Assembly (NCBI RefSeq): GCF_003428335.1
Contig: NZ_CP031704.1
Location: 2,418,001 to 2,482,000, forward strand
DNA length: 64,000 bases
Source: Solimonas sp. K1W22B-7
GTDB taxonomy: Bacteria > Pseudomonadota > Gammaproteobacteria > Nevskiales > Nevskiaceae
Direction of reading: 5' to 3'
Part shown: positions 28,435 through 42,319 of the stretch, piece by piece
Layout of the letters: every line of letters starts with the position of its first letter
Position numbering within the stretch: the first letter of the stretch is position 1
Notes under the pieces: generated by a model
Seen by the model: the letters and a program-made list of their open reading frames with translations, nothing else
What the model was told of the DNA's origin: nothing
Database searches by the model: none
Translations under genes and position numbers: made by a program

Positions 28435-32088
<3,654 letters not shown>

Positions 32089-32108
32089 GCTACAGGGGCA
32101 TGTGCCGC

Positions 32109-32190
32109 ATGTAGGTTGGACTGAGCGCAGCGATGTCCAACAATCCGACCATCGCGCGTTGGACATCGCTGCGCTCAGTCCAACCTACAT
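32109..32190. repeat. Perfect 33-bp palindrome (GTAGGTTGGACTGAG family), copy 1
   Basis: Arms 32109-32141 and 32158-32190 are perfectly complementary, with a 16-base loop containing AATCCGACCAT. A near-identical copy with the same loop theme is at 40949-41026. Confidence 0.9.
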
Positions 32191-32202
32191 ACACGAGCTA
32201 TT

Positions 32203-32226
32203 GTGGGAGCGACGCAAGTCGCGATC
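32203..32226. repeat. REP-like 24-mer left of the Rhs island
   Basis: GTGGGAGCGACGCAAG... contains GCGAC-GCAA-GTCGC and is followed by T6, so it may also terminate the mscS transcript. The exact 24 bases recur in inverse orientation at 42020-42043. Confidence 0.7.
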
Positions 32227-32372
32227 TTTTTTACATCGACCGCGCATCGCACCTGCTATGGCTATGGCAGAGTCTGACTCGATCTCAGCCTGAGTTAGCC
32301 ATCAGCCACGGCCTCGGCCTCAGGCTTCGCCCGACGCGCGATGCATCCTTGCGGATGACCGGAATGGTCAAG

Positions 32373-32404
32373 GAAATGCCAGCGCAAGCCGGCATTTCTT
32401 TTTG
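32373..32404 (+). terminator. Terminator-like hairpin upstream of the Rhs gene
   Basis: GAAATGCC/GGCATTTC stem (32373-32380 and 32391-32398) followed by TTTTT. A wider CCGGAATGG/CCATTCCGG pairing surrounds it. The remaining 32405-32543 is non-coding and holds the Rhs-gene leader; I see no clear -35/-10 pair there. Confidence 0.65.
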
Positions 32405-32543
32405 GGCCTCGGCTCCATTCCGGATGCATGTGAACTCTCCAACCTGACGGCATCGTCACGTTGACGAAGCTCTGCCCATGAGTTGATATGAGCCCGAAGC
32501 AGGAACTTCGGGCGGCGCAGATCGCCCTTGATTGGGGAATTTC

Positions 32544-35500
32544 ATGGGGTCGCGATTCGCTTTCGGCAAGGCGTTCTTCTTGGCGCTTGCCATGTGTATG
32601 ACTACTCAGTCCCACGCTCAATCCGAGGGGGAAGCCCTCTGGATCGGTGAAAAGACGGCACTAGTTAAGCTTGATCCGGCCACGGGACAGCGGTTGGCTC
32701 GACTTACGCAGTTGACGGATGTGCGCGCAGCCGCGATCGACGAGCGCGGTGGAGTCATGTGGGTCTATTCCAGTCATCGGTTACTCCGACTCGGATTGGA
32801 TGGCGCAGTCCAGAAGACGATTGCCTTGCCTCAGATCAGCGGCATGCTGACCTTGCCGTTTCCCTTGCTGCCGCCCCTGGTGCAAGAAGACCTGCAGTGC
32901 TCTGGAGAGGGGGCGATTCCGGCGCTCGCCCCCGATTCGCCGTCGTTCCCGATGCCCGCGTTGGCGGTCGAGCCGGTGGACGGCGCCGTGTGGCTGGCTG
33001 TGGCCAATCGCCTGTTCAAGTTCGACTTCGCGGGTCAGAAACTCGCCGAGGTCACTCTCGATGGTGTGGCGGTGGATGTTGCTTATGATCGCCAGCAGAA
33101 TCGCACCTGGGTTGCTCAGTGCCGCAAACTCAAGGCGTTCGATGCAAGCGGCCAGGTGGTTGCCACATTGCCCGTGCTGGCTACCGGAGAGAGGATGCCG
33201 CTGCGAGCCATCGACTATGACCCCACGTCGAACGAGCTTTGGGTTGCTCTGAGCAAGCGGTTGCGCCGCTACTCGGCGGATGGCAGCCGCACCCTGGACG
33301 TCGCCCGCGGTAGTCTGCGTAGTGTTCGTGCCGATCAGCAGGGAGGCGCCTGGGTCGCGGACGGAACCACTCTTCAGCACGTCAGCGCAGCGGGTGCTGT
33401 GGCTGCCAGTGTCACTCCCTTTCCAGGCCTGTTGCCGAAGTACATCAGCAGCCTTGCAATCGACCTGAGCAGAGGTGGTGTCTGGGTTCTGGCCAAGGAT
33501 ACTTTGCGATACGTTGATTCCGCCGGAACGCTGCAGTTCAACGTCACTGCGGCAACCATAGGAGCTGGATTTCTCCCGCAGCTATACGCTGTCGCGCCGA
33601 TGGGTGATCTGATTCCACCCGACCTGTCGATCACTTCGCCGCTTGCCGAAGCGCAAGTGGCCACGCGCAAGCCGCTGGTGGTCCTGCAGTACGTTGATCT
33701 TGGATCGGGGGTTGATCCAAGTTCCATAGAAATCAGCGCCAACGGCGTTGCGAATGCGGTTGCATGTACTCATGCGGCAGGAGGAAGCACCTGCACCCTG
33801 GCCCAACTGCCGGCGGATGGCACGGCCGCAGTGGCGGCAAGTGTTGCAGACATGGCGGGAAATCGTTCTGAAACTGCCACCGTTACTTTCACGGTGGACA
33901 CCGTTCCTCCGCCCCTGCCCAATGACTCAGGCATTGCCATGAGTCCCTCCGTTGGCGGAAACACGACGGTCACGGGCGGAGCGGGTGCGGTTGAGGGCGG
34001 GATCAATGTCGTCGTCACAAATGTACGTACCGGGCAGCGCTTCACCGTCCGAGCAAACGCGGACGGCAGCTTCTCTCTGGTGGTCCAGGCCGCGCCAGAC
34101 GATGTACTGAAGATAGTTTCCGAAGATGCGGCCGGTAATCGCAGTGGCCAGCTTGAACGAACCGTTGCGGGCGTCAGCCCGCCGCCCGATCCTTCAACGG
34201 TGGCACCTCCGCTGGTCGAAAATGGCAGCACGCCCTTTGCGTCCACGGTGGATTTCTTGTACACCGGTGGCAGCCCGATCCAGACCGGTGTCGCCAGTGC
34301 CACTATCTACCCGGATCGTGTCGCGGTCTTGCGGGGACAGGTACGTACGCGAGCCGGAGCCGCACTTTCGGGCGTGGTCGTCAAGGTGCTCAATCACCCG
34401 GAGTTCGGCCAGACCCTGACGCGAACAGATGGTGTCTTCGATCTGGCGGTCAATGGTGGAGCAACGCTGACACTGGACTATCAGAAGAATGGATACCTGC
34501 CGCTGCAGCGCCAGGTCAGCCCGGGTTGGAAGTCCTACAAGTGGGCAGACGACGTCGTGATGATCGGTTTCGATCCGCAGGTGACCGAGATCAATCTGGC
34601 TGACCAGTCACAGTCGTTCCAGGTCGCAAGAAGCAGTGTGACAAACGACGCTTCAGGATCTCGCCAAGCGACGATGCTCTTCCCATCCGGGATGACAGCG
34701 CAGATGGAGCTGCCGAACGGCCAGCAGCAGGCTCTGACGCAAATGAATGTCCGGGCCACGGAGTACACGGTCGGTTCCAATGGCTCTCAGGCCATGCCTG
34801 GCAATCTGCCCCGGACATCCGGGTACACCTATGCTGCGGAGTTGAGTGTCGATCAGGCCGTTGCCGCGGGCGCCACCACGGTGCGCTTCAGCAAGCCGGT
34901 CATCGTCTACATCGACAATTTCCTGAATTTCCCCGCCGGACAGACCGTTCCTGTTGGCTACTACGATCGTCAGGCCGGTGTTTGGCGTGCGAGCGAGAAT
35001 GGAAAGGTAGTCAAGATCATCGGCACTCAGTCCGGCAGGGCAGTGCTCGACGTGACCGGAAATGGCCAAGCCGCTACCCAGGCTGCATTGGATGCCCTGG
35101 GTATCACGCAGCCGGAACTCCAGCAGCTGGCACAGCTCTACTCGGTCGGGAAAAGCATGTGGCGCAGCCCGATCTCCCATTTCACGCCGGATGACTGGAA
35201 TTGGCCATATGGACCGCCGATGGACGCCAGGAAGCCGCCACGTGAGTCACCCGATAAAAGCGACAAGCACGAGCCCAAGGACTCTGATGAGGAATGCGAT
35301 AAGAGCGGGTGTGTCATCAGTGCGCAAACCCGGTCGCTCAAAGAGCACCTGCCTATTCCCGGAACCGCGTTGTCCTTGACCTACGGCAGCGACAGGGTTC
35401 CGGGATACGCCAAGAACTCCATGCGCATTCGCCTCACTGACGGTGCCGCACAGCCGGCCAGCCTAAAGTCCATAAGCGTTGAGATCGAGATTGCAGGCAG

Positions 35501-38500
35501 GAAATATGTCACGAACTATCCGGGAGCCCCAAACCTGTTTCACAACTTCACCTGGACTGGATATGACGGGTATCACCGCAAGCAATTCGGAACCCACGAC
35601 GCCAAGGTAAAGCTCGTTCACCATTATCCTTGCCAGTATTACGCGACCCTCGCGGGAGTCCAGAATGCCTGGGCTACCATCGGAGATGCTGATGCAATCC
35701 TTGGCGTCCGGAATGACGGCTGCGACTCAGCCGACGTATTCGTTGAATGGGCGGTTTCCATGGAGTCTCCGTTCAAATTCAAGGCTCAGCAGAGTGTGGG
35801 AACTTGGTCGCTCAACCCGCATCACGCGTATGAGCCTAGCCGCGGTAGCCTTCACTTCGGTGATGGCCGGCGTTCGCAACTCGCAGCCCACATAGAAACA
35901 GTGGCGGGCGGTGGTGCGTTCCGACCTTCCTATGGTGATGGAGGCCCCGCAACTGATGCTCATCTGGTGCGTCCTGGCGACGTGGTAGCCGGACCTGATG
36001 GCAGCCTCTACATAACTGATATGGATGCGGGCTCAGTTCGCAAGGTGAACCGAAACGGCATCATTACCAGGTTCGCGGGCATGGGCCAGAACGGATGGAG
36101 GAATACTAACGACGACGGTGGCCTCGCAACGCAGGCCTATCTGCACACCCCGTTCGGGGTCGACGTGGACGCAGCGGGTAACGTCTATATCGCGGATACC
36201 TACAACGCGCTCATTCGGAAAGTGAGTCCCAGTGGAATCATTACCACCATTGCGGGCACCGGGGCGCCAGGGTTTTCTGGTGATGGCGGCCCCGCGACAG
36301 CAGCAGAACTAACCTCGCCCCAAGCTGTGGCAATCGATGCCATGGGAAATATCTATGTTGCCGACACATATGCGCATCGTGTTCGAAAGATTGATTCAGA
36401 CGGAATCATCACAACGGTGGCGGGTACCGGCGAGCGTGGTCGGTTCGGAAACGGTGGGCCCGCAACAGAAGCACAACTCGACAAACCGGATGACATAGCT
36501 GTCGATGCTGCAGGCAATCTGTATATTGCCGAAGCTCTCTATAGAGTTCGTCGGGTTCGTCCGGATGGCATTATTGAGGCAGTAGCGGGGACCGATCAGT
36601 CGGAATTCTCTGGCGACGGTGGGCTGGCAACTATCGCAGGTCTAAATTTCCCCTATGGCATTGATGTGGATGCGATAGGAAACATCTACATCGCCGATTG
36701 TGCCAATGCTCGAGTGCGGAAAATTGACGTCAGGGGAATCATTTCCACTGTTGCCGGTAAGGATCCCGGTGGTTTTTCCGGTGACGGCGGACTGCCCACC
36801 GCCGCAGACATGGGCTGTGTCTTCGGAATCAGCGTGGATGCCGCTGGCAATATCTATACGGCCGAAACCGGCAATCAACGCGTCCGCAAGATTACCTCCG
36901 AAAGCTTCATCGGATTCCCCGCGGATGCTGAATCCGTCAACGTTCCGTCGTCTGACGGATCGGAAGTCTACGTCTTCAACAAATACGGATTCCATCAAAG
37001 GACACTGAATGCCTACACGGGGGCAATCCTGTTGTCCTTTGGGTACGATGCCGAAAACCGGCTGCTGACACTGACGGATGCTGACGGCAACGTCACTACC
37101 ATTGAGCGTGATGGCAGGGGTGAAGCTACAGCTATCGTTGCGCCGGATGGACAGCGCACTACCGTGACTGTGGACGGAAATGGCGACCTCGCATCGCTGA
37201 CCTATCCCAATGGCAGCAGCTGGTCCATGGACTATGACGGTGCAGGTTTGCTGACTCGCTTCGAGACGCCGAATGGGCATGCGAATGCCTACGCATATGA
37301 TGGCGACGGCCGCCTCAACAGCGATGTGGCCCCGAATGAAGGTGGGTGGCAGCTCGCACGGGAAAGCCTGGGTGATAGCGGCTATCGCACCACCATGACC
37401 AGCGGAGAGGGGCGTGTTTCAAGCTTCACCGTACAACTCGATGCACTCAATGCCCGCGTATATACGGACAAGGGTCCGGACGGTCTCGCGAGCATGCGCC
37501 GGTATCTTGCAGACGTGACAACCGTTGAAGAACCCGATGGCACTGTCACCACTGCTAGGGAGGGCCCAGATCCGCGATTCCAGCTGTTCTCGCCGCTGAT
37601 CACGGACCGCAGTATCGCCACTCCGTCGGGCTTGATGCGGCAGCAGACCTTGCAGCGTACCGTTCAGCTCCAGAATCCTGCTGACTCCTTGAGTCTGATC
37701 AGTCAAACCGACCTGATCGGGGTCAACGGCCGCCAGTCCTCCCAGAGCTTCGATGCTGCCACCAACCGGTGGACGGGGACTTCCGCTGGCGGGCGTTCCC
37801 TGATCCAGGATGTCGATGAGCAAGGGCGAGCGTTGCTGGTGCAGGGTGGCGGTCTGGCTCCAATTCACTACAGTTACGACACTCGCGGCCGTCTCAGCGA
37901 CATGGTTGTAGGCAACGGGGCAGCGGCGCGGGCATGGAGCTTCACCTACTATGGCGACGATGCTGGGGCGCAGGCTGGCCGGCTCGCCTCCGCTACCGAT
38001 CCGGCGGAGCGAACCACAAGCTTTGAGTACGACGCTGCGGGGCGCCTGACAGCAGAGGTTTTGCCCGGCAACCGGCGTGTCGAGTACGGGCATGATCCCA
38101 ACGGCAACCTGACGGCGCTCAAGCCGCCGGGCAGTGAACTGCATGCCTATGAGTATGACAACGTCGATCAGGTAGATGGATACCTGCCGCCTGAGGTGGA
38201 TGAAGACGAGATAGCGACTCGCTACCACTACAATCGCGACAAGCAGCTGACCTCGATCGTGCGGCCTGACGGCGAGCTGTATGAACTCAGCTACGATGGC
38301 AGTGGCAGGCTGCAATCGCTTAGCACTGCGCCAGGTGCGATTGTCTACTCCTACCATCCGGTGACTGGGCAGCTCAGCAACATGCAGTCGCCGGGCGGAA
38401 CGCTTAGCTACACCTACGATGGCTTTCTGCCGACGAGTGAATCCATCAGTGGTCTGTTCAGTGCCACGGTTTCGCGTAGCTACGACAACAATTTCTGGCT

Positions 38501-40013
38501 GCGCAGTCTGAGCGTCAATGGCGAAGCGGTATCTTTCGACTACGACGCTGATGGGCTGCTAATCCAGGCAGGCGAAATGACCCTGACTCCAGACGCACAG
38601 AACGGGCTATTGCGAGCCACCGCGCTGGGAGATTTGCATACGAGCCAGAGCTTTAACGTCTTCGGCGAGTTGGAAGATCAGCAGGCCAGCTATGACGGCG
38701 ATGCGCTCTATTCAGCTCACTACGTTCGCGATGAACTCGGCCGTATCGCCGAGAAACAGGAATCCGTCCAGGGCGAGCAAGTCAACTATGGCTATGCGTA
38801 CGACACACCGGGCCGACTCGTCCAGGTAACGATCAATGGCGCTATCGCCCGGACCTATGTCTATGATGACAACGGTAACCGCCGCTGGGCCAATGCAACT
38901 GAGGGGACCTACGACGCCCAAGACCGACTACTGACCTACGGGGCCGTGAGCTACAGCCACAATGCCAACGGCGAGCGCAAGACCAGAACCGAGGGCGTTG
39001 CAACCACGCGCTATGACTACGATGCCCTGGGAAATCTATGGCGAGTTGAGTTGCCAGGAGACGTGGTGATTGACTACCGCGTGGACGGCCGAAATCGGCG
39101 TATTGCCAAGAAGGTGAACGGCACTACGGTGCAAGGGTTTGTCTATCAGGATCAACTCAATCCGATTGCGGAACTGGATGGCAGTGGCAACGTCGTCGCA
39201 CGCTTTGTGTACGCGGATAAGGGCAATGTGCCGAGCTATATGGTCAAGGGTGGGCAAGCATACAGAATCATTAGCGACCAGCTAGGTAGTCCCAGGATTG
39301 TCGTTGACGCCAACACTGGCGAGGTGGTTCAGAGAATGGACTACGACGAATTCGGGGGGGTAACGCAGGACACAAATCCCGGCTTCCAGCCGTTCGGATT
39401 TGCCGGCGGACTCCACGATCAACACACACAACTATTGAGGTTCGGCGCGCGTGATTATGATCCCGAAACTGCCCGATGGACCGCAAAAGACCCTATAGGT
39501 TTTGGAGGCGGCGATTCGAATCTTTACGCATACGTCGGAGGGGATTCAGTTAACTACGTGGATCCATTTGGGCTTGAGATAGCTATCGTTGTTAATGGCC
39601 CCACATCGGGAAATCCGTTTGGACACGCGGCTATTGCCGTCACCGGCGCTGGTGTTTATAGCTTTGGTAACGACACCAATCTAGGGTCGTCTTTAACTGA
39701 CTATCTTGAGCGCCAAGCACCCCTTCGAGATACTGAAATTAGGATAATCCCTACCACCACGGAGCAGGAGCGAGAGACCCTCGACTACTTAAAGAAATTC
39801 TCCGATAGGAACGGCGTTGGCTACTTCGATAACTGCGCAGTCAGAACTGGCGATGCGTTACGTGCAGCAGATATTCCTGTCAGAGATCCGCTGGCCACCT
39901 CATCCTTTCCAGAAGGGATTCGCAGGGCAATGAATAATTTGCCTGGGATAACCGTGAATATTCCGCGAAACGGGAGCGTTCCTGCGAATTTATCTAGCTT
40001 CAATCCAAAGTAG
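32544..40013 (+). CDS. Giant secreted NHL/YD-repeat (Rhs-like) protein with C-terminal effector domain
   Basis: 2489 aa from ATG 32544 (GGGG ribosome site at 32534). Signal peptide 1-25 (ends SHA). Order of parts: beta-propeller-like N-terminus (about 33-350), two Ig-like segments (about 356-536), a carboxypeptidase-regulatory-like domain (about 592-642), a charged linker (about 895-920), six NHL repeats with VDAAGNVYIADT motifs (about 1132-1452), then YD repeats with the Rhs core-associated RFGARDYDPETARWTAKDPIG. The Rhs boundary DPFGL is followed by a 145-residue tip (2345-2489) with a GHAAIAV histidine (2361) and a DNCAVRT cysteine (2431), the His-before-Cys order of permuted NlpC/papain-like folds. 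Composition becomes AT-richer in the tip. Likely a contact-delivered toxin or adhesin. Confidence 0.85.
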   Translation: MGSRFAFGKAFFLALAMCMTTQSHAQSEGEALWIGEKTALVKLDPATGQRLARLTQLTDVRAAAIDERGGVMWVYSSHRLLRLGLDGAVQKTIALPQISGMLTLPFPLLPPLVQEDLQCSGEGAIPALAPDSPSFPMPALAVEPVDGAVWLAVANRLFKFDFAGQKLAEVTLDGVAVDVAYDRQQNRTWVAQCRKLKAFDASGQVVATLPVLATGERMPLRAIDYDPTSNELWVALSKRLRRYSADGSRTLDVARGSLRSVRADQQGGAWVADGTTLQHVSAAGAVAASVTPFPGLLPKYISSLAIDLSRGGVWVLAKDTLRYVDSAGTLQFNVTAATIGAGFLPQLYAVAPMGDLIPPDLSITSPLAEAQVATRKPLVVLQYVDLGSGVDPSSIEISANGVANAVACTHAAGGSTCTLAQLPADGTAAVAASVADMAGNRSETATVTFTVDTVPPPLPNDSGIAMSPSVGGNTTVTGGAGAVEGGINVVVTNVRTGQRFTVRANADGSFSLVVQAAPDDVLKIVSEDAAGNRSGQLERTVAGVSPPPDPSTVAPPLVENGSTPFASTVDFLYTGGSPIQTGVASATIYPDRVAVLRGQVRTRAGAALSGVVVKVLNHPEFGQTLTRTDGVFDLAVNGGATLTLDYQKNGYLPLQRQVSPGWKSYKWADDVVMIGFDPQVTEINLADQSQSFQVARSSVTNDASGSRQATMLFPSGMTAQMELPNGQQQALTQMNVRATEYTVGSNGSQAMPGNLPRTSGYTYAAELSVDQAVAAGATTVRFSKPVIVYIDNFLNFPAGQTVPVGYYDRQAGVWRASENGKVVKIIGTQSGRAVLDVTGNGQAATQAALDALGITQPELQQLAQLYSVGKSMWRSPISHFTPDDWNWPYGPPMDARKPPRESPDKSDKHEPKDSDEECDKSGCVISAQTRSLKEHLPIPGTALSLTYGSDRVPGYAKNSMRIRLTDGAAQPASLKSISVEIEIAGRKYVTNYPGAPNLFHNFTWTGYDGYHRKQFGTHDAKVKLVHHYPCQYYATLAGVQNAWATIGDADAILGVRNDGCDSADVFVEWAVSMESPFKFKAQQSVGTWSLNPHHAYEPSRGSLHFGDGRRSQLAAHIETVAGGGAFRPSYGDGGPATDAHLVRPGDVVAGPDGSLYITDMDAGSVRKVNRNGIITRFAGMGQNGWRNTNDDGGLATQAYLHTPFGVDVDAAGNVYIADTYNALIRKVSPSGIITTIAGTGAPGFSGDGGPATAAELTSPQAVAIDAMGNIYVADTYAHRVRKIDSDGIITTVAGTGERGRFGNGGPATEAQLDKPDDIAVDAAGNLYIAEALYRVRRVRPDGIIEAVAGTDQSEFSGDGGLATIAGLNFPYGIDVDAIGNIYIADCANARVRKIDVRGIISTVAGKDPGGFSGDGGLPTAADMGCVFGISVDAAGNIYTAETGNQRVRKITSESFIGFPADAESVNVPSSDGSEVYVFNKYGFHQRTLNAYTGAILLSFGYDAENRLLTLTDADGNVTTIERDGRGEATAIVAPDGQRTTVTVDGNGDLASLTYPNGSSWSMDYDGAGLLTRFETPNGHANAYAYDGDGRLNSDVAPNEGGWQLARESLGDSGYRTTMTSGEGRVSSFTVQLDALNARVYTDKGPDGLASMRRYLADVTTVEEPDGTVTTAREGPDPRFQLFSPLITDRSIATPSGLMRQQTLQRTVQLQNPADSLSLISQTDLIGVNGRQSSQSFDAATNRWTGTSAGGRSLIQDVDEQGRALLVQGGGLAPIHYSYDTRGRLSDMVVGNGAAARAWSFTYYGDDAGAQAGRLASATDPAERTTSFEYDAAGRLTAEVLPGNRRVEYGHDPNGNLTALKPPGSELHAYEYDNVDQVDGYLPPEVDEDEIATRYHYNRDKQLTSIVRPDGELYELSYDGSGRLQSLSTAPGAIVYSYHPVTGQLSNMQSPGGTLSYTYDGFLPTSESISGLFSATVSRSYDNNFWLRSLSVNGEAVSFDYDADGLLIQAGEMTLTPDAQNGLLRATALGDLHTSQSFNVFGELEDQQASYDGDALYSAHYVRDELGRIAEKQESVQGEQVNYGYAYDTPGRLVQVTINGAIARTYVYDDNGNRRWANATEGTYDAQDRLLTYGAVSYSHNANGERKTRTEGVATTRYDYDALGNLWRVELPGDVVIDYRVDGRNRRIAKKVNGTTVQGFVYQDQLNPIAELDGSGNVVARFVYADKGNVPSYMVKGGQAYRIISDQLGSPRIVVDANTGEVVQRMDYDEFGGVTQDTNPGFQPFGFAGGLHDQHTQLLRFGARDYDPETARWTAKDPIGFGGGDSNLYAYVGGDSVNYVDPFGLEIAIVVNGPTSGNPFGHAAIAVTGAGVYSFGNDTNLGSSLTDYLERQAPLRDTEIRIIPTTTEQERETLDYLKKFSDRNGVGYFDNCAVRTGDALRAADIPVRDPLATSSFPEGIRRAMNNLPGITVNIPRNGSVPANLSSFNPK

Positions 40014-40022
40014 TCGATAGGA

Positions 40023-40493
40023 ATGAAAAAATTTCCGCGTCTTTTTGCAATTTATTTGATACTAGGATTCTCTTTTTGGGGATGTTCCTCGGATGCAAAT
40101 AGAACACTCGTTACCGCCTCAGGCGATGGAGACGTGGAAAAAATTCAGGAACTTTTGCGGAATGGTGCCGATGTAAATTTTCACTTGTTCGATTCTGGCA
40201 TTACTCCTCTTATGGCGGCATCAAAAAGAGGGAACATAGCCGCGATTGAAGCGCTTCTTGTAGCAGGCGCAGATATAAACGCCACGGACCATGACGTGGG
40301 TACGGCATTGTATTGGGCTGCATTTGAAGGACAGCTGGAATCAATGAACATTCTGCTCAAACGCGGCGCGAGGTTAAGGTGTAAAAAAGAGTCAACGCTA
40401 TATTTGTTGAAAATTATCCGTGCAAAGGGACGGGACGATGTGCTGCGGCTAGTGTTAGCGCATCTGAGGAAAGAGTGTCCAGAACAAAAGTAG
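40023..40493 (+). CDS. Ankyrin-repeat putative lipoprotein (candidate immunity protein)
   Basis: 156 aa. N-terminal hydrophobic signal ending FSFWGC, an imperfect lipobox with Cys21, then three to four ankyrin repeats (RNGADVNFHLFDSGITPLMAA, VAGADINATDHDVGTALYWAA, ILLKRGARL). It begins 9 bases after the Rhs stop, is AT-richer than the chromosome, and would sit in the envelope where a periplasm-acting Rhs tip needs neutralising. The toxin-immunity pairing is inferred from position and type; ankyrin proteins also have other roles. Confidence 0.8.
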   Translation: MKKFPRLFAIYLILGFSFWGCSSDANRTLVTASGDGDVEKIQELLRNGADVNFHLFDSGITPLMAASKRGNIAAIEALLVAGADINATDHDVGTALYWAAFEGQLESMNILLKRGARLRCKKESTLYLLKIIRAKGRDDVLRLVLAHLRKECPEQK

Positions 40494-40525
40494 TGAGAAA
40501 ATTCATATCCCCTCACTAGTTTTTT
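40491..40525 (+). terminator. Terminator after the ankyrin gene
   Basis: TAGTGAG/CTCACTA stem, the first base triplet being the stop codon, a 20-base loop, then TTTTTT. Modest stem strength. Confidence 0.5.
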
Positions 40526-40688
40526 GGTGCCGAGGCTGGCGCTCAGCGATCCTGAATCAGCCCGACTAGGGCGGGTCTTTGACCCGCCGGTCGCGACTCT
40601 TGAAATGCTGACAGCATGATCAACCGAGGGCATCTAGCGCATAGCGAAACGGCGCCATTCCCGCGTATAGGCATGGGATGAGAGGAAC

Positions 40689-40919
40689 ATGAATAGAGAC
40701 ACTTATCGCAGAGCGGTGTTTCATTACATGCGAGTTGCAAGCATGGTGATGGGTGTCATCTGCGTCTTGTTCTGTTTTCTCGCGATCTACGACGTTGCAT
40801 TCAATGGGCGAAAATGGGGATATCCAATCTGGACGTTGCTGGTTCTCTTGGGCTTCATAGCTATCCTCTGGATTGTGCATAAACTGGCCAAAGATGAGTT
40901 GGCGAAGAATGGCCTGTGA
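40689..40919 (+). CDS. Small two-helix membrane protein
   Basis: 76 aa with two hydrophobic helices (about 18-35 and 46-64), a basic N-terminus and a charged C-terminus. Preceded by GAGAGGAAC, a good ribosome site. No family recognised. Its place behind the Rhs/ankyrin pair suggests an island cargo or an orphan immunity gene, but this is only context. Confidence 0.6.
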   Translation: MNRDTYRRAVFHYMRVASMVMGVICVLFCFLAIYDVAFNGRKWGYPIWTLLVLLGFIAILWIVHKLAKDELAKNGL

Positions 40920-40948
40920 AAGCGCGTAGGTTGGACTGCCCAAAGCTC

Positions 40949-41026
40949 GTAGGTTGGACTGAGCACAGCGATGTCCAACAATCCGACCATTGCACGTTGG
41001 ACATCGCTGCGCTCAGTCCAACCTAC
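40949..41026. repeat. 31-bp palindrome (GTAGGTTGGACTGAG family), copy 2
   Basis: Arms 40949-40979 and 40996-41026 with one mismatch and a loop almost identical to copy 1 at 32109-32190. A partial extra copy of the arm start lies at 40926-40937. Confidence 0.88.
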
Positions 41027-41060
41027 ATGAGCTGCCTGTGTCAAAAACAGCGAAGATTAC

Positions 41061-41384
41061 GTGGGCGAACTAGATAAGATGATTCGGGATCATGCACTTT
41101 GCAGGCTTGCAGAGATATTCAAAGTTCCCTTGGAGAGCCTGCGCCCCTTCCATCGCTTTGATGTCGATCTTAAGTCAAGCTTTGTCTCTGACTTTCGGAG
41201 AAATGAACTCGACAAGGTCAGTGATGATATTCACGATGTTGCGGATAAGCACATCATGAAGGAGTTTGCTTCTGATAAAACAGTTATTGGAACCGTTGAA
41301 GACTACTGCAACCATATGATCCGGTGCGGCAAACTAAACCCTAAGGAGGTGGAAAGGCTTCTCGGGGTAAAAATAGAAAATTAA
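41061..41384 (+). CDS. Hypothetical protein, island gene
   Basis: 107 aa from GTG 41061; an internal ATG at 41079 is an alternative. Soluble, mixed charge, predicted mostly helical; ends in a segment TVEDYCNHMIRC then LNPKEVERLLGVKIEN. The general pattern (acidic helix 2, TVEDY near the third helix) faintly recalls acyl-carrier-like domains, but the carrier DSL serine motif is absent, so I do not assign it. AT-rich compared with housekeeping genes. Confidence 0.55.
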   Translation: MGELDKMIRDHALCRLAEIFKVPLESLRPFHRFDVDLKSSFVSDFRRNELDKVSDDIHDVADKHIMKEFASDKTVIGTVEDYCNHMIRCGKLNPKEVERLLGVKIEN

Positions 41385-41416
41385 AAGGGCCAAGTGCTCA
41401 AGGCGGATGGGATGGA

Positions 41417-41812
41417 ATGACTGAAGGTGCGTGTGGCTGCACACATAGAGGTATGACGCGCTTTTGGATAGTTGCAAACTACTTGTTTGGTGCTCTGCTA
41501 CTAATTGGAGCAATCGTAATTGCATGGACGATGGCAACTCGCGGTGTCTTTACTGGCTTTGGCGTCGCGTGTGTAAGCATCCTCACAATACTTGCCATAG
41601 GTCACATCAGATTTAATCGTTGGGCTGCATGTGCTTCAGCCATTCTTGCGTGGGGCGCATGTTTTTTGGCGACGGTATACTTATACGGGGAATACGAGCA
41701 GCGCCTTCTTCCTCCTTTTGAAGAACGGCTCTTTCACTTTGCAGGGGTTCTAGCTCTGGCAGTGTTGCTAACTGCTAACTACAAAGCGTTGCGAAATGGA
41801 CGTGCCGCATAG
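41417..41812 (+). CDS. Hypothetical four-helix membrane protein
   Basis: 131 aa from ATG 41417, or 119 aa from ATG 41453 (the latter starts directly before the first helix). Four hydrophobic segments (about residues 19-40, 45-62, 69-90, 104-122) and a short basic C-terminus. No family recognised. AT-rich like its neighbours. Last gene of the accessory stretch before the bolA cluster. Confidence 0.55.
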   Translation: MTEGACGCTHRGMTRFWIVANYLFGALLLIGAIVIAWTMATRGVFTGFGVACVSILTILAIGHIRFNRWAACASAILAWGACFLATVYLYGEYEQRLLPPFEERLFHFAGVLALAVLLTANYKALRNGRAA

Positions 41813-41946
41813 AGGATTACGTCATCCCGTGTTCCGTAGTGTTTAAAACTAGAAACGGACCACTTCGGGGTACTTCATCTGACTTCAAATCTAGCCCGGA
41901 CTAGTCGCAGGGAGATTTACAGAAACCCTCTCCCGCCCTCTGGGCA

Positions 41947-41970
41947 CCCTCTCCCGCAGGCGGGAGAGGG
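41947..41970. repeat. Short palindrome CCCTCTCCCG-CAGG-CGGGAGAGGG
   Basis: Perfect 10-bp stem with 4-base loop; a partial copy (CCCTCTCCCG) is at 41926-41935. It lies in the 240-base gap 41813-42052, which holds no gene. Confidence 0.75.
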
Positions 41971-42019
41971 GACTATTGCAGCGAACTTCCAGCTCGGGAC
42001 ACCAGTCATGGGAGGACAG

Positions 42020-42043
42020 GATCGCGACTTGCGTCGCTCCCAC
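42020..42043. repeat. REP-like 24-mer right of the Rhs island (inverted copy)
   Basis: Exact reverse complement of 32203-32226. It sits 9 bases beyond the bolA stop. Confidence 0.75.
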
Positions 42044-42052
42044 GGGTGAGGC

Positions 42053-42319
42053 TCAGGCTTCGCTGGGAGTTCGCGCGCTGATGGCCAGCGCGTGGATATC
42101 CGTCTGCATCATCTCGCCCAGCGCGGCGTAGACCTGGCGGTGGCGCGCGACGTGCCCCTGGCCTTCGAAGGCGGCGGACACGATCTTGACGCGGAAGTGT
42201 CCGCGGCCGGTGGCGGCGCCGGCGTGGCCGGCATGCAGGTGGCTTTCGTCTTCCACCGCCAGTTCCACCGGTGCGAAGGCCTGCAGCAGGCAGTCGCGGA
42301 TGCGTTCGACGCGGTTCAT
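42053..42319 (-). CDS. bolA: BolA family protein
   Basis: 88-aa member of the BolA family, which works with monothiol glutaredoxins in iron-sulfur handling and affects envelope and morphology genes. Conserved helix-turn region ending in the family C-terminal IHALAISA; the N-terminal [12 protein letters not shown] helix and the [14 protein letters not shown] strand are typical. Its start overlaps the yciI stop by 4 bases. A longer frame upstream lies within yciI and is not used. BolA versus IbaG assignment is not certain. Confidence 0.9.

What the first reader, a model, noticed from the sequence alone, without database searches (positions are those of the whole stretch)
32544..40013. Secreted NHL-plus-YD-repeat giant with a permuted papain/NlpC-like tip
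Six NHL repeats placed inside an Rhs-like shell, with Ig-like and carboxypeptidase-regulatory domains in front, is an unusual architecture. The tip after DPFGL has GHAAIAV (His2361) before DNCAVRT (Cys2431), the order of circularly permuted NlpC/P60- and LRAT-like enzymes, implying an amidase, peptidase or acyltransferase effector. It has a Sec signal and no PAAR or VgrG gene nearby, so delivery is not ordinary type VI.
Basis: partly seen in the sequence, partly recalled or inferred. Interest (0 to 1): 0.7.

Follow-up and report, generated by a model that had tools for sequence, protein, structure and literature searches.

The report
Bacterial teneurin-like toxin, papain-like tip
This gene encodes a bacterial relative of the animal nerve-wiring proteins called teneurins: a secreted shell carrying a small toxin that probably attacks membrane lipids of rival bacteria, with its likely antidote gene next door; the class is already known, so this is a new member with a toxin of a rarely seen sort.

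Summary
The 2489-aa protein (32544-40013) is real and the quoted residues (H2361, C2431) are right. The architecture is not new: TTR, TIP, FN-plug, NHL and YD-shell are collinear with the cryo-EM bacterial teneurin-like protein BiTLP (1166 bits), a class published in February 2026 (PMC13018210). Both Asp and the Arg of the shell protease are present. The tip (2345-2489) belongs to a small family that no Pfam or NCBIfam model matched. AlphaFold2 gives pLDDT 85.8; its only clear structural neighbours are circularly permuted papain-like proteins, led by YiiX (Z 10.1). The permuted-papain reading is thus supported. Ankyrin lipoproteins follow this tip in two other genomes; six of seven relatives are followed by an exported protein. 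That points to a periplasmic toxin with its immunity protein, most likely a lipid acyl-hydrolase (precedents Tox-Act1, Tle6/Tli), less likely a cell-wall amidase. The genome has no T6SS sheath gene. The unit is a 10-kb insertion missing from three congeners. Side finding: a conserved Cys in the plug cleavage loop (29 of 29 relatives), plus a second at +1 or +5. New member of a known kind.

The parts
32544..40013 (+). bacterial teneurin-like protein (TLP), 2489 aa
   Evidence: ORF; collinear phmmer match to BiTLP 9pt5/9ifo, 1166 bits
32544..32618 (+). predicted Sec signal peptide (SPI type, cleavage after SHA, read by eye)
   Evidence: hydrophobicity and lack of a lipobox-like motif
32622..33650 (+). 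N-terminal region, propeller-like repeats by eye; no accepted Pfam match
   Evidence: protein 1
33723..34166 (+). two bacterial Ig-like stretches (Big_13, Big_6)
   Evidence: Big_13 above its cut-off; Big_6 just below it
34314..34562 (+). teneurin TTR domain (PF25020), residues 591-673
   Evidence: E 1.1e-24
34563..35141 (+). TIP region between TTR and FN-plug, about residues 674-866 (limits transferred from BiTLP)
   Evidence: alignment; domain limits from PMC13018210
35142..35891 (+). FN-plug, about residues 867-1116 (limits transferred from BiTLP)
   Evidence: PF24329 weak, E 0.0073, under its cut-off
35295..35312 (+). plug cleavage loop C918-D-K-S-G922|C923, aligned with BiTLP C719-N-K-E-G723|S724
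35892..36905 (+). NHL propeller
   Evidence: PF25021 E 1.7e-39, PF01436 E 2.5e-23
36906..39575 (+). YD shell and RHS core
   Evidence: PF25023 E 6.2e-42, RHS_repeat, Rhs_assc_core E 3.3e-20
39450..39575 (+). autoprotease motif: R2303, D2316 (DPIG), D2340 (DPFG), spacings as in BiTLP R2103, D2116, D2140
   Evidence: positions and the sequence; BiTLP residues from PMC13018210
39576..40010 (+). toxin tip, residues 2345-2489, permuted papain-like fold
39624..39626 (+). H2361, predicted catalytic His
   Evidence: invariant in 6 of 6
39834..39836 (+). C2431, predicted catalytic Cys, only Cys in the tip
40023..40493 (+). exported ankyrin-repeat protein (probable lipoprotein, FWGC), candidate immunity protein
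   Evidence: relatives next to the same tip in L010 and L016
32111..32190 (.). 80-nt palindromic repeat, left flank
40949..41028 (.). 80-nt palindromic repeat, right flank, 96% identical to the left one
32037..42056 (.). inserted segment missing from three congeneric genomes
41061..41384 (+). small ORF of unknown family inside the inserted segment
41417..41812 (+). small membrane-type ORF (by eye) of unknown family inside the inserted segment

Best explanation
A polymorphic toxin of the bacterial teneurin-like protein (TLP) class. Shown by sequence: a Sec-exported shell protein with the TTR-TIP-FN-plug-NHL-YD order of BiTLP and an intact set of shell-protease residues. Shown by prediction: the tip folds as a circularly permuted papain-like (YiiX/LRAT-type) domain with a His-Cys pair. 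Inferred: the shell cleaves itself in front of the tip (after DPFGL) and in the plug loop (G922|C923), holds the tip inside, and presents it at the cell surface or outside the cell through the N-terminal propeller-like and Ig-like modules. After contact with another bacterium the tip reaches the target periplasm by an unknown route and hydrolyses acyl bonds of membrane phospholipids or lipoproteins (favoured), with C2431 as nucleophile and H2361 as base. The adjacent ankyrin-repeat lipoprotein neutralises it in the periplasm of the producer and its kin. My estimates per step: TLP membership about 0.97; permuted papain-like fold about 0.9; toxin/immunity pair with the ankyrin protein about 0.8; periplasmic action about 0.75; lipid acyl bond rather than peptidoglycan about 0.55.
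For: TLP: single collinear match to 9pt5/9ifo over residues about 592-2344, 1166 bits; teneurin-specific Pfam domains; R2303/D2316/D2340 with the BiTLP spacing. Tip: G-H and D-[N/T]-C-A-x-R invariant in six sequences from different carriers; AF2 pLDDT 85.8, pTM 0.83; VIA-align Z 10.1 YiiX (2.9 A, 124 residues), 8.3 BcPPNE, 6.8 RID, 5.3 Aichivirus 2A, 5.1 DUF862, all recalled as or stated in PMC3142127 to be permuted papain-like, then a drop to 3.0. Immunity: ankyrin gene 9 nt downstream; 51% identical relative behind the same tip in G034; a third in Desulfocapsaceae L016. Periplasm: of 7 tips with a readable downstream side, 6 are followed at once by a protein with an N-terminal hydrophobic export signal, 4 of these with a lipobox-like motif; L018 is not. 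Lipid: permuted NlpC/P60 enzymes have a hydrophobic S1 pocket and YiiX binds a fatty acid (PMC3142127, passages); Tox-Act1, a permuted NlpC/P60 T6SS effector, is toxic only in the periplasm and cleaves PG and PE (PMC12994826, passages); the Tle6 phospholipase is neutralised by the lipidated periplasmic ankyrin protein Tli (PMC11470151, passages). Not T6SS.
Against: Foldseek found no PDB match at E <= 0.001, and the YiiX match rests on a second look at Foldseek's list. No member of the tip family matches a Pfam papain or LRAT family, and hhalign of the family profile with E. coli YiiX is not significant (Prob 0.1). The YiiX-type catalytic Glu is replaced by an invariant Ser (S2373, my reading of the register). 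The ankyrin-tip complex could not be predicted (fused model pTM 0.52). Ankyrin immunity also exists against a peptidoglycan endopeptidase (Bd3460, PMC4686830). The window's own ankyrin lipobox is imperfect (FWGC). No delivery route is known for any TLP.
Confidence: 0.6

Rival explanations
1. Same TLP and same fold, but the tip is a peptidoglycan amidase or endopeptidase, as canonical NlpC/P60 enzymes are, and the ankyrin protein protects the cell wall.
For: Periplasmic immunity fits the cell wall equally well; Bdellovibrio Bd3460, an exported ankyrin protein, blocks peptidoglycan DD-endopeptidases (PMC4686830, passages).
Against: Permuted members studied so far have hydrophobic S1 pockets and act on lipids; TseH, once called an endopeptidase, showed phospholipase activity in a fluorescence assay though none in the mass-spectrometry assay (PMC12994826, passages).
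Confidence: 0.25
2. The tip is a protein-directed peptidase or acyltransferase acting in the cytoplasm of bacteria or of eukaryotic predators (RID- or PPPDE-like).
For: RID and DUF862/PPPDE are among the fold neighbours.
Against: An adjacent exported immunity-like gene is found in 6 of 7 tip loci, which suits a periplasmic antibacterial toxin; Z falls from 10.1 for YiiX to 6.8 and 5.1 for these.
Confidence: 0.08
3. The protein is chiefly a surface adhesin or motility/signalling protein and the tip is a vestige or non-toxic.
For: The N-terminus is adhesin-like; the TLP paper leaves cell-cell communication open (PMC13018210); only three of nine tested TLP CTDs inhibited E. coli there.
Against: Tip residues expected to be catalytic are invariant across distant carriers, the tip moves between unrelated Rhs carriers with an exported neighbour gene, and tip plus ankyrin gene have the lowest G+C of the locus, 47.6-48.5% in the windows at 39500-40999, as expected of a swapped toxin cassette.
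Confidence: 0.07

Closest known systems
BiTLP, teneurin-like protein of Bacillus inaquosorum (PDB 9pt5, 9ifo; PMC13018210)
   Same: Same order TTR-TIP-FN-plug-NHL-YD shell; same protease residues and spacing; plug loop with Cys and a G|nucleophile bond; C-terminal toxin; downstream gene.
   Different: BiTLP tip is a 92-aa hydrophobic membrane-active CTD; here a 145-aa permuted papain-like domain. Scissile Ser is Cys here. BiTLP is Gram-positive; N-terminal modules differ.
YiiX / BcPPNE (permuted NlpC/P60, YaeF/YiiX-like; PDB 2if6, 3kw0; PMC3142127)
   Same: Predicted fold and topology, His strand before Cys helix, Z 10.1 and 8.3.
   Different: No significant sequence match; catalytic Glu replaced by Ser; signature Tyr not identified.
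Tox-Act1/Imm-Act1 (Salmonella T6SS effector; PMC12994826)
   Same: Permuted NlpC/P60 toxin tip with His and Cys; membrane-associated immunity; periplasmic action (for our tip inferred).
   Different: T6SS-delivered; immunity with two transmembrane helices; our tips match no known NlpC/P60 Pfam model. Not compared in sequence here.
Tle6/Tli of Enterobacter cloacae (PMC11470151)
   Same: Ankyrin-repeat lipoprotein as immunity protein, paired with a periplasm-acting effector.
   Different: Tle6 is a Ser lipase carried by T6SS. Homology of Tli to our ankyrin protein was not tested beyond the repeat family.
Animal teneurins (PDB 6fb3 and others)
   Same: Same superfold order FN-plug-NHL-YD; 242-326 bits for the teneurin chains with our protein.
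   Different: Animal ones keep an uncleaved ABD/Tox-GHH C-terminus outside the shell and are adhesion receptors (PMC13018210).

Membership tests
Bacterial teneurin-like proteins (TLP) | FN-plug, NHL and YD shell adjacent, in this order, in one frame | tested here: met
   collinear with BiTLP; NHL and YD Pfam models strong, FN-plug model weak
Bacterial teneurin-like proteins (TLP) | TTR domain and TIP insertion before the FN-plug | tested here: met
   PF25020 E 1.1e-24; alignment through BiTLP 399-720
Bacterial teneurin-like proteins (TLP) | shell aspartyl protease: two Asp in DPxG motifs and the Arg | tested here: met
   D2316, D2340 and R2303, spacings 24 and 13 as BiTLP D2116, D2140, R2103 (PMC13018210)
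Bacterial teneurin-like proteins (TLP) | highly conserved (not defining) Ser after the plug cleavage point (S724) | tested here: not met
   Cys923 instead; Cys in 12 of 29 gammaproteobacterial TLPs examined, Ser in 17, so this is a variant within the family; the paper defines TLPs by the three superfold domains, not by this residue
Bacterial teneurin-like proteins (TLP) | actual cleavage and encapsulation of the tip | not testable with these tools
   needs protein
Bacterial teneurin-like proteins (TLP) | gene for an immunity protein directly downstream | tested here: met
   ankyrin gene 9 nt downstream, relatives at two other tip loci; binding not shown
Permuted NlpC/P60 (YaeF/YiiX, LRAT type) | papain-like core with His before Cys | tested here: met
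   AF2 model and VIA-align; predicted, not solved
Permuted NlpC/P60 (YaeF/YiiX, LRAT type) | polar third catalytic residue (Glu in YaeF/YiiX) | tested here: inconclusive
   an invariant Ser (S2373) falls at the expected strand by my hand register with YiiX; geometry not measured
Permuted NlpC/P60 (YaeF/YiiX, LRAT type) | signature Tyr of the superfamily | tested here: inconclusive
Permuted NlpC/P60 (YaeF/YiiX, LRAT type) | hydrophobic S1 pocket | not testable with these tools
   no coordinates returned
Permuted NlpC/P60 (YaeF/YiiX, LRAT type) | match to a curated family model (C92, LRAT, DUF4105 and the like) | tested here: not met
   0 of 6 members match any of them; hence 'folds like', not 'is a member of a named family'
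T6SS Rhs effector | T6SS in the genome | tested here: not met
   no T6SS_VipA in G000
T6SS Rhs effector | PAAR or VgrG partner | not tested
   not searched as such

The most novel reading that the evidence does not exclude
TLP shells are redox-clipped. In 29 of 29 TLPs examined the plug loop has a Cys within 14 residues upstream of the autoproteolytic bond, and 27 of 29 have a second Cys: at +1 (12) or at +5 (13), never both, or a second one upstream (2). The pair would form a disulfide that straddles the cleaved bond and keeps plug and toxin in place until it is reduced; in BiTLP, which has only the upstream Cys, the same Cys holds the toxin directly (C719-C2216). If so, reduction would be the missing trigger that opens a teneurin shell. 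A bolder variant for this protein, that C918 pairs with the catalytic C2431 and so keeps the enzyme off, is less likely because C923 offers a nearer partner and ordinary Rhs tips also nearly always carry a Cys (17 of 18).
Probability: 0.25. Interest if true: 0.65.

Novelty: new member of a known kind. Interest (0 to 1): 0.42.

Why it matters
Bacterial teneurin-like proteins are the relatives from which animal teneurins are thought to derive, and how they release their toxins is unknown (PMC13018210). This locus gives a compact, testable pair: a tip with a predicted enzyme fold and nucleophile, and an ankyrin protein as candidate antidote, in a host without T6SS. It extends lipid-type permuted papain toxins to the TLP platform (3 of 22 TLP tips that I could read look so). 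The cysteine pattern around the plug cleavage point offers a concrete hypothesis for shell opening.

Tried and rejected
Family models: Pfam, NCBIfam and PHROGs gave no usable match for the tip; PDB sequence searches with the tip and with its profile gave only chance-level hits. Foldseek alone gave nothing at E <= 0.001. No relative of the tip was found in viral contigs or phage records.

Weak tip hits in four class genomes (L004-L007, E 0.004-0.009) were dropped. The plasmid fragment H1/L015 was not used in alignments. G034's tip is cut by its contig start and was left out of A3; G032's distant tip was left out too.

Fused tip-ankyrin prediction to see whether the antidote covers the active site: pTM 0.52, relative placement not trustworthy.

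Catalytic-Cys latch (C918-C2431): TLP tips have a Cys in 21 of 22 readable cases (20 of the 21 hand-entered, which left out L100), but so do 17 of 18 ordinary Rhs tips (11 of 29 control loci dropped because no core was recognised), so there is no enrichment; exactly one Cys is commoner in TLP tips (12 of 21 against 4 of 18, p 0.049), which I regard as weak. The 22 readable TLP tips come from 30 loci; 6 ran off a contig and 2 had a broken frame. An earlier control on own-genome Rhs loci read only two tips. The +1/+5 Cys pattern (p 6e-5) ignores relatedness of the sequences; the seven TLP loci of the phylum search (L091-L097) were not added to it.

Full report
What is there. The window lies in a 5.37-Mb single-contig genome (99.7% complete). 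A family-mate, G049, carries on its contig 33 (42,037 bases) the same tip locus as record PNMW01000024.1, also 42,037 bases, titled Lysobacteraceae bacterium BC.045, so the window's organism is of that family. The ORF 32544-40013 codes for 2489 aa.

The shell is a bacterial teneurin. Pfam finds teneurin-specific models: TTR (591-673), NHL, YD-shell and, weakly, FN-plug. A PDB sequence search aligns residues about 592-2344 in one collinear stretch with the 'Teneurin-like protein' chains 9pt5 and 9ifo, 1166 bits; animal teneurins follow at 242-326 bits and T6SS Rhs shells at about 110 bits or less. These chains are BiTLP of PMC13018210 (I read parts 1-4 of 11 of its text, and passages). That paper defines TLPs by FN-plug, NHL and YD shell in order, finds a TIP domain between TTR and FN-plug, a cleavage before the C-terminal domain by two Asp and an Arg, a second cleavage in the plug at G723|S724, a C719-C2216 disulfide, polymorphic tips, and an immunity gene downstream. 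Here R2303, D2316 and D2340 sit with the BiTLP spacings, and the plug loop reads C918-D-K-S-G922|C923 against C719-N-K-E-G723|S724. So the 'unusual architecture' has a name. TLPs are uncommon: with the TTR-TIP-FN-plug query, 22 of 369 genomes of the class, 6 of 146 relatives and 8 of 398 of the phylum match, the own genome counted each time; in the own family only the own genome, of 58, does.

The tip. Residues 2345-2489 match no Pfam, NCBIfam or PHROGs model and no PDB sequence. Relatives exist on different carriers: an ordinary YD protein of a Desulfocapsaceae MAG, Stenotrophomonas acidaminiphila, a Lysobacteraceae MAG, Lysobacter maris and Diaphorobacter aerolatus, plus a contig-cut copy in G034 and a distant one in G032. 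Six aligned sequences keep 19 columns invariant, among them G-H, the Ser 12 residues after the His, and D-x-C-A-x-R. AlphaFold2 gives pLDDT 85.8 and pTM 0.83. Foldseek finds nothing significant, but VIA-align on its candidates puts YiiX first (Z 10.1, 2.9 A over 124 residues), then BcPPNE (8.3), RID (6.8), Aichivirus 2A (5.3) and DUF862 (5.1), with the sixth row at 3.0. PMC3142127 (passages) treats YiiX, BcPPNE and PPPDE1 as one permuted class; that RID, DUF862 and the 2A protein share it I partly recall. E. coli YiiX can be laid on the tip by eye in the same order (His strand, Glu/Ser strand, helix, strand, helix, Cys helix), but hhalign sees only an insignificant 15-column patch, in that same register. 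I therefore say that the tip folds like permuted NlpC/P60 enzymes, not that it is a member of a named family.

The neighbour. Nine bases after the stop codon lies a 156-aa protein with a hydrophobic N-terminus, FWGC and ankyrin repeats. In G034 a 51% identical protein with IVGC follows the same tip, and in the Desulfocapsaceae contig a third with LLGC. In L. maris a lipoprotein-like gene and in D. aerolatus an exported gene, weakly related to each other, take that place; in S. acidaminiphila it is a protein with an N-terminal membrane stretch; in the Lysobacteraceae MAG no such gene was seen. So 6 of 7 tips are followed by a protein fit for the periplasm. A joint fold of tip and ankyrin protein was not decisive (pTM 0.52).

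How it likely works. Export signal on the toxin side, exported antidotes on the other, and a fold whose studied permuted members act on lipids: YiiX holds a fatty acid (PMC3142127); Tox-Act1 is toxic in the periplasm and cleaves PG and PE (PMC12994826, passages); Tle6 phospholipase is neutralised by a lipidated ankyrin protein (PMC11470151, passages). Against this stands Bd3460, an exported ankyrin protein that guards peptidoglycan (PMC4686830, outline and passages). I favour lipid acyl hydrolysis over cell-wall cleavage by about two to one. The search that I ran for teneurin-like proteins together with NlpC, papain, Rhs or ankyrin and a term search inside PMC13018210 (no 'papain', 'NlpC', 'phospholipase' or 'ankyrin') found no earlier report of this combination; supplementary files were not readable. 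Ankyrin repeats as immunity proteins are listed in PMC3482391 (passages), there with another toxin (Tox-AHH).

Delivery. VipA/TssB is absent from the genome, so an ordinary T6SS cannot carry this protein. The TLP paper states that no delivery machinery is known.

Origin. In three congeners the flanking genes lie side by side: window 31776/32036 and 42057/42066 are 83 to 328 bases apart there. About 10 kb was gained here, or lost in all three. G+C is 64-71% in the flanking genes, 53-62% in the TLP, and 48-49% at the tip and ankyrin gene, which suggests that the cassette came separately from the shell. Two 80-nt palindromic repeats, 96% identical, bracket the pair; other copies of the arm in the genome differ at 2-3 positions.

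Two side results. First, permuted-papain-like tips recur on TLPs: besides the window, G300 and G058 (L085, L090) have such tips, picked by eye and weakly supported by the A3 profile (E 3e-4 and 2e-6 among three test sequences), so 3 of 22 readable TLP tips. Second, the plug loop: of 29 TLP genes (one split gene counted once), all 29 have a Cys within 14 residues upstream of the scissile bond; +1 is Ser in 17 and Cys in 12; Cys at +5 occurs in 13 of the 17 Ser cases and 0 of the 12 Cys cases (Fisher p 6e-5, relatedness ignored). Ser/Cys exchange at +1 suits a nucleophile that starts the autocleavage, and the Cys pattern suits either a disulfide across the cut or metal binding (the TLP paper mentions possible metal density there).

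Verdict. A genuine, intact bacterial teneurin-like toxin locus with a permuted papain-like tip and a likely ankyrin antidote: a new member of a known kind, worth a bench test mainly for its tip chemistry and for the cysteine clip.

Noticed in passing
window 35295-35312 and loci L041-L070: Plug cleavage loop of TLPs: conserved upstream Cys (29 of 29) and a second Cys at +1 or +5, mutually exclusive.
   Followed up: partly
L085 (G300) and L090 (G058), C-terminal about 115-125 aa of the TLP: Two other TLPs carry tips with the GHxxI...[TN]C order, so permuted papain-like tips look recurrent on TLP shells.
   Followed up: partly
window 32111-32190 and 40949-41028: Two near-identical palindromic 80-nt repeats bracket the TLP-ankyrin pair; looser copies of the arm occur at other sites in the genome.
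   Followed up: partly
window 41061-41384 and 41417-41812: Two small ORFs of no known family in the same inserted low-G+C segment; possible further immunity or orphan genes.
   Followed up: no
L112 and L113 (G000:C1 about 998500-1018400 and 1020000-1039900): Two neighbouring open frames of 6632 and 6661 aa with many YD repeats in the same genome.
   Followed up: no
L008 13069-15353: In G049 a row of orphan Rhs tip fragments with small exported ORFs and a transposase, among them the tip relative: looks like a store of displaced toxin cassettes.
   Followed up: no
L015 3848-4216: A fragment like the front half of the tip on a Pseudomonas aeruginosa plasmid, next to transposase genes.
   Followed up: no
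L014 1429-3396 (-): An ordinary YD protein with a distant GHVS...NNC tip (E 6.7e-8 to the A1 profile).
   Followed up: partly
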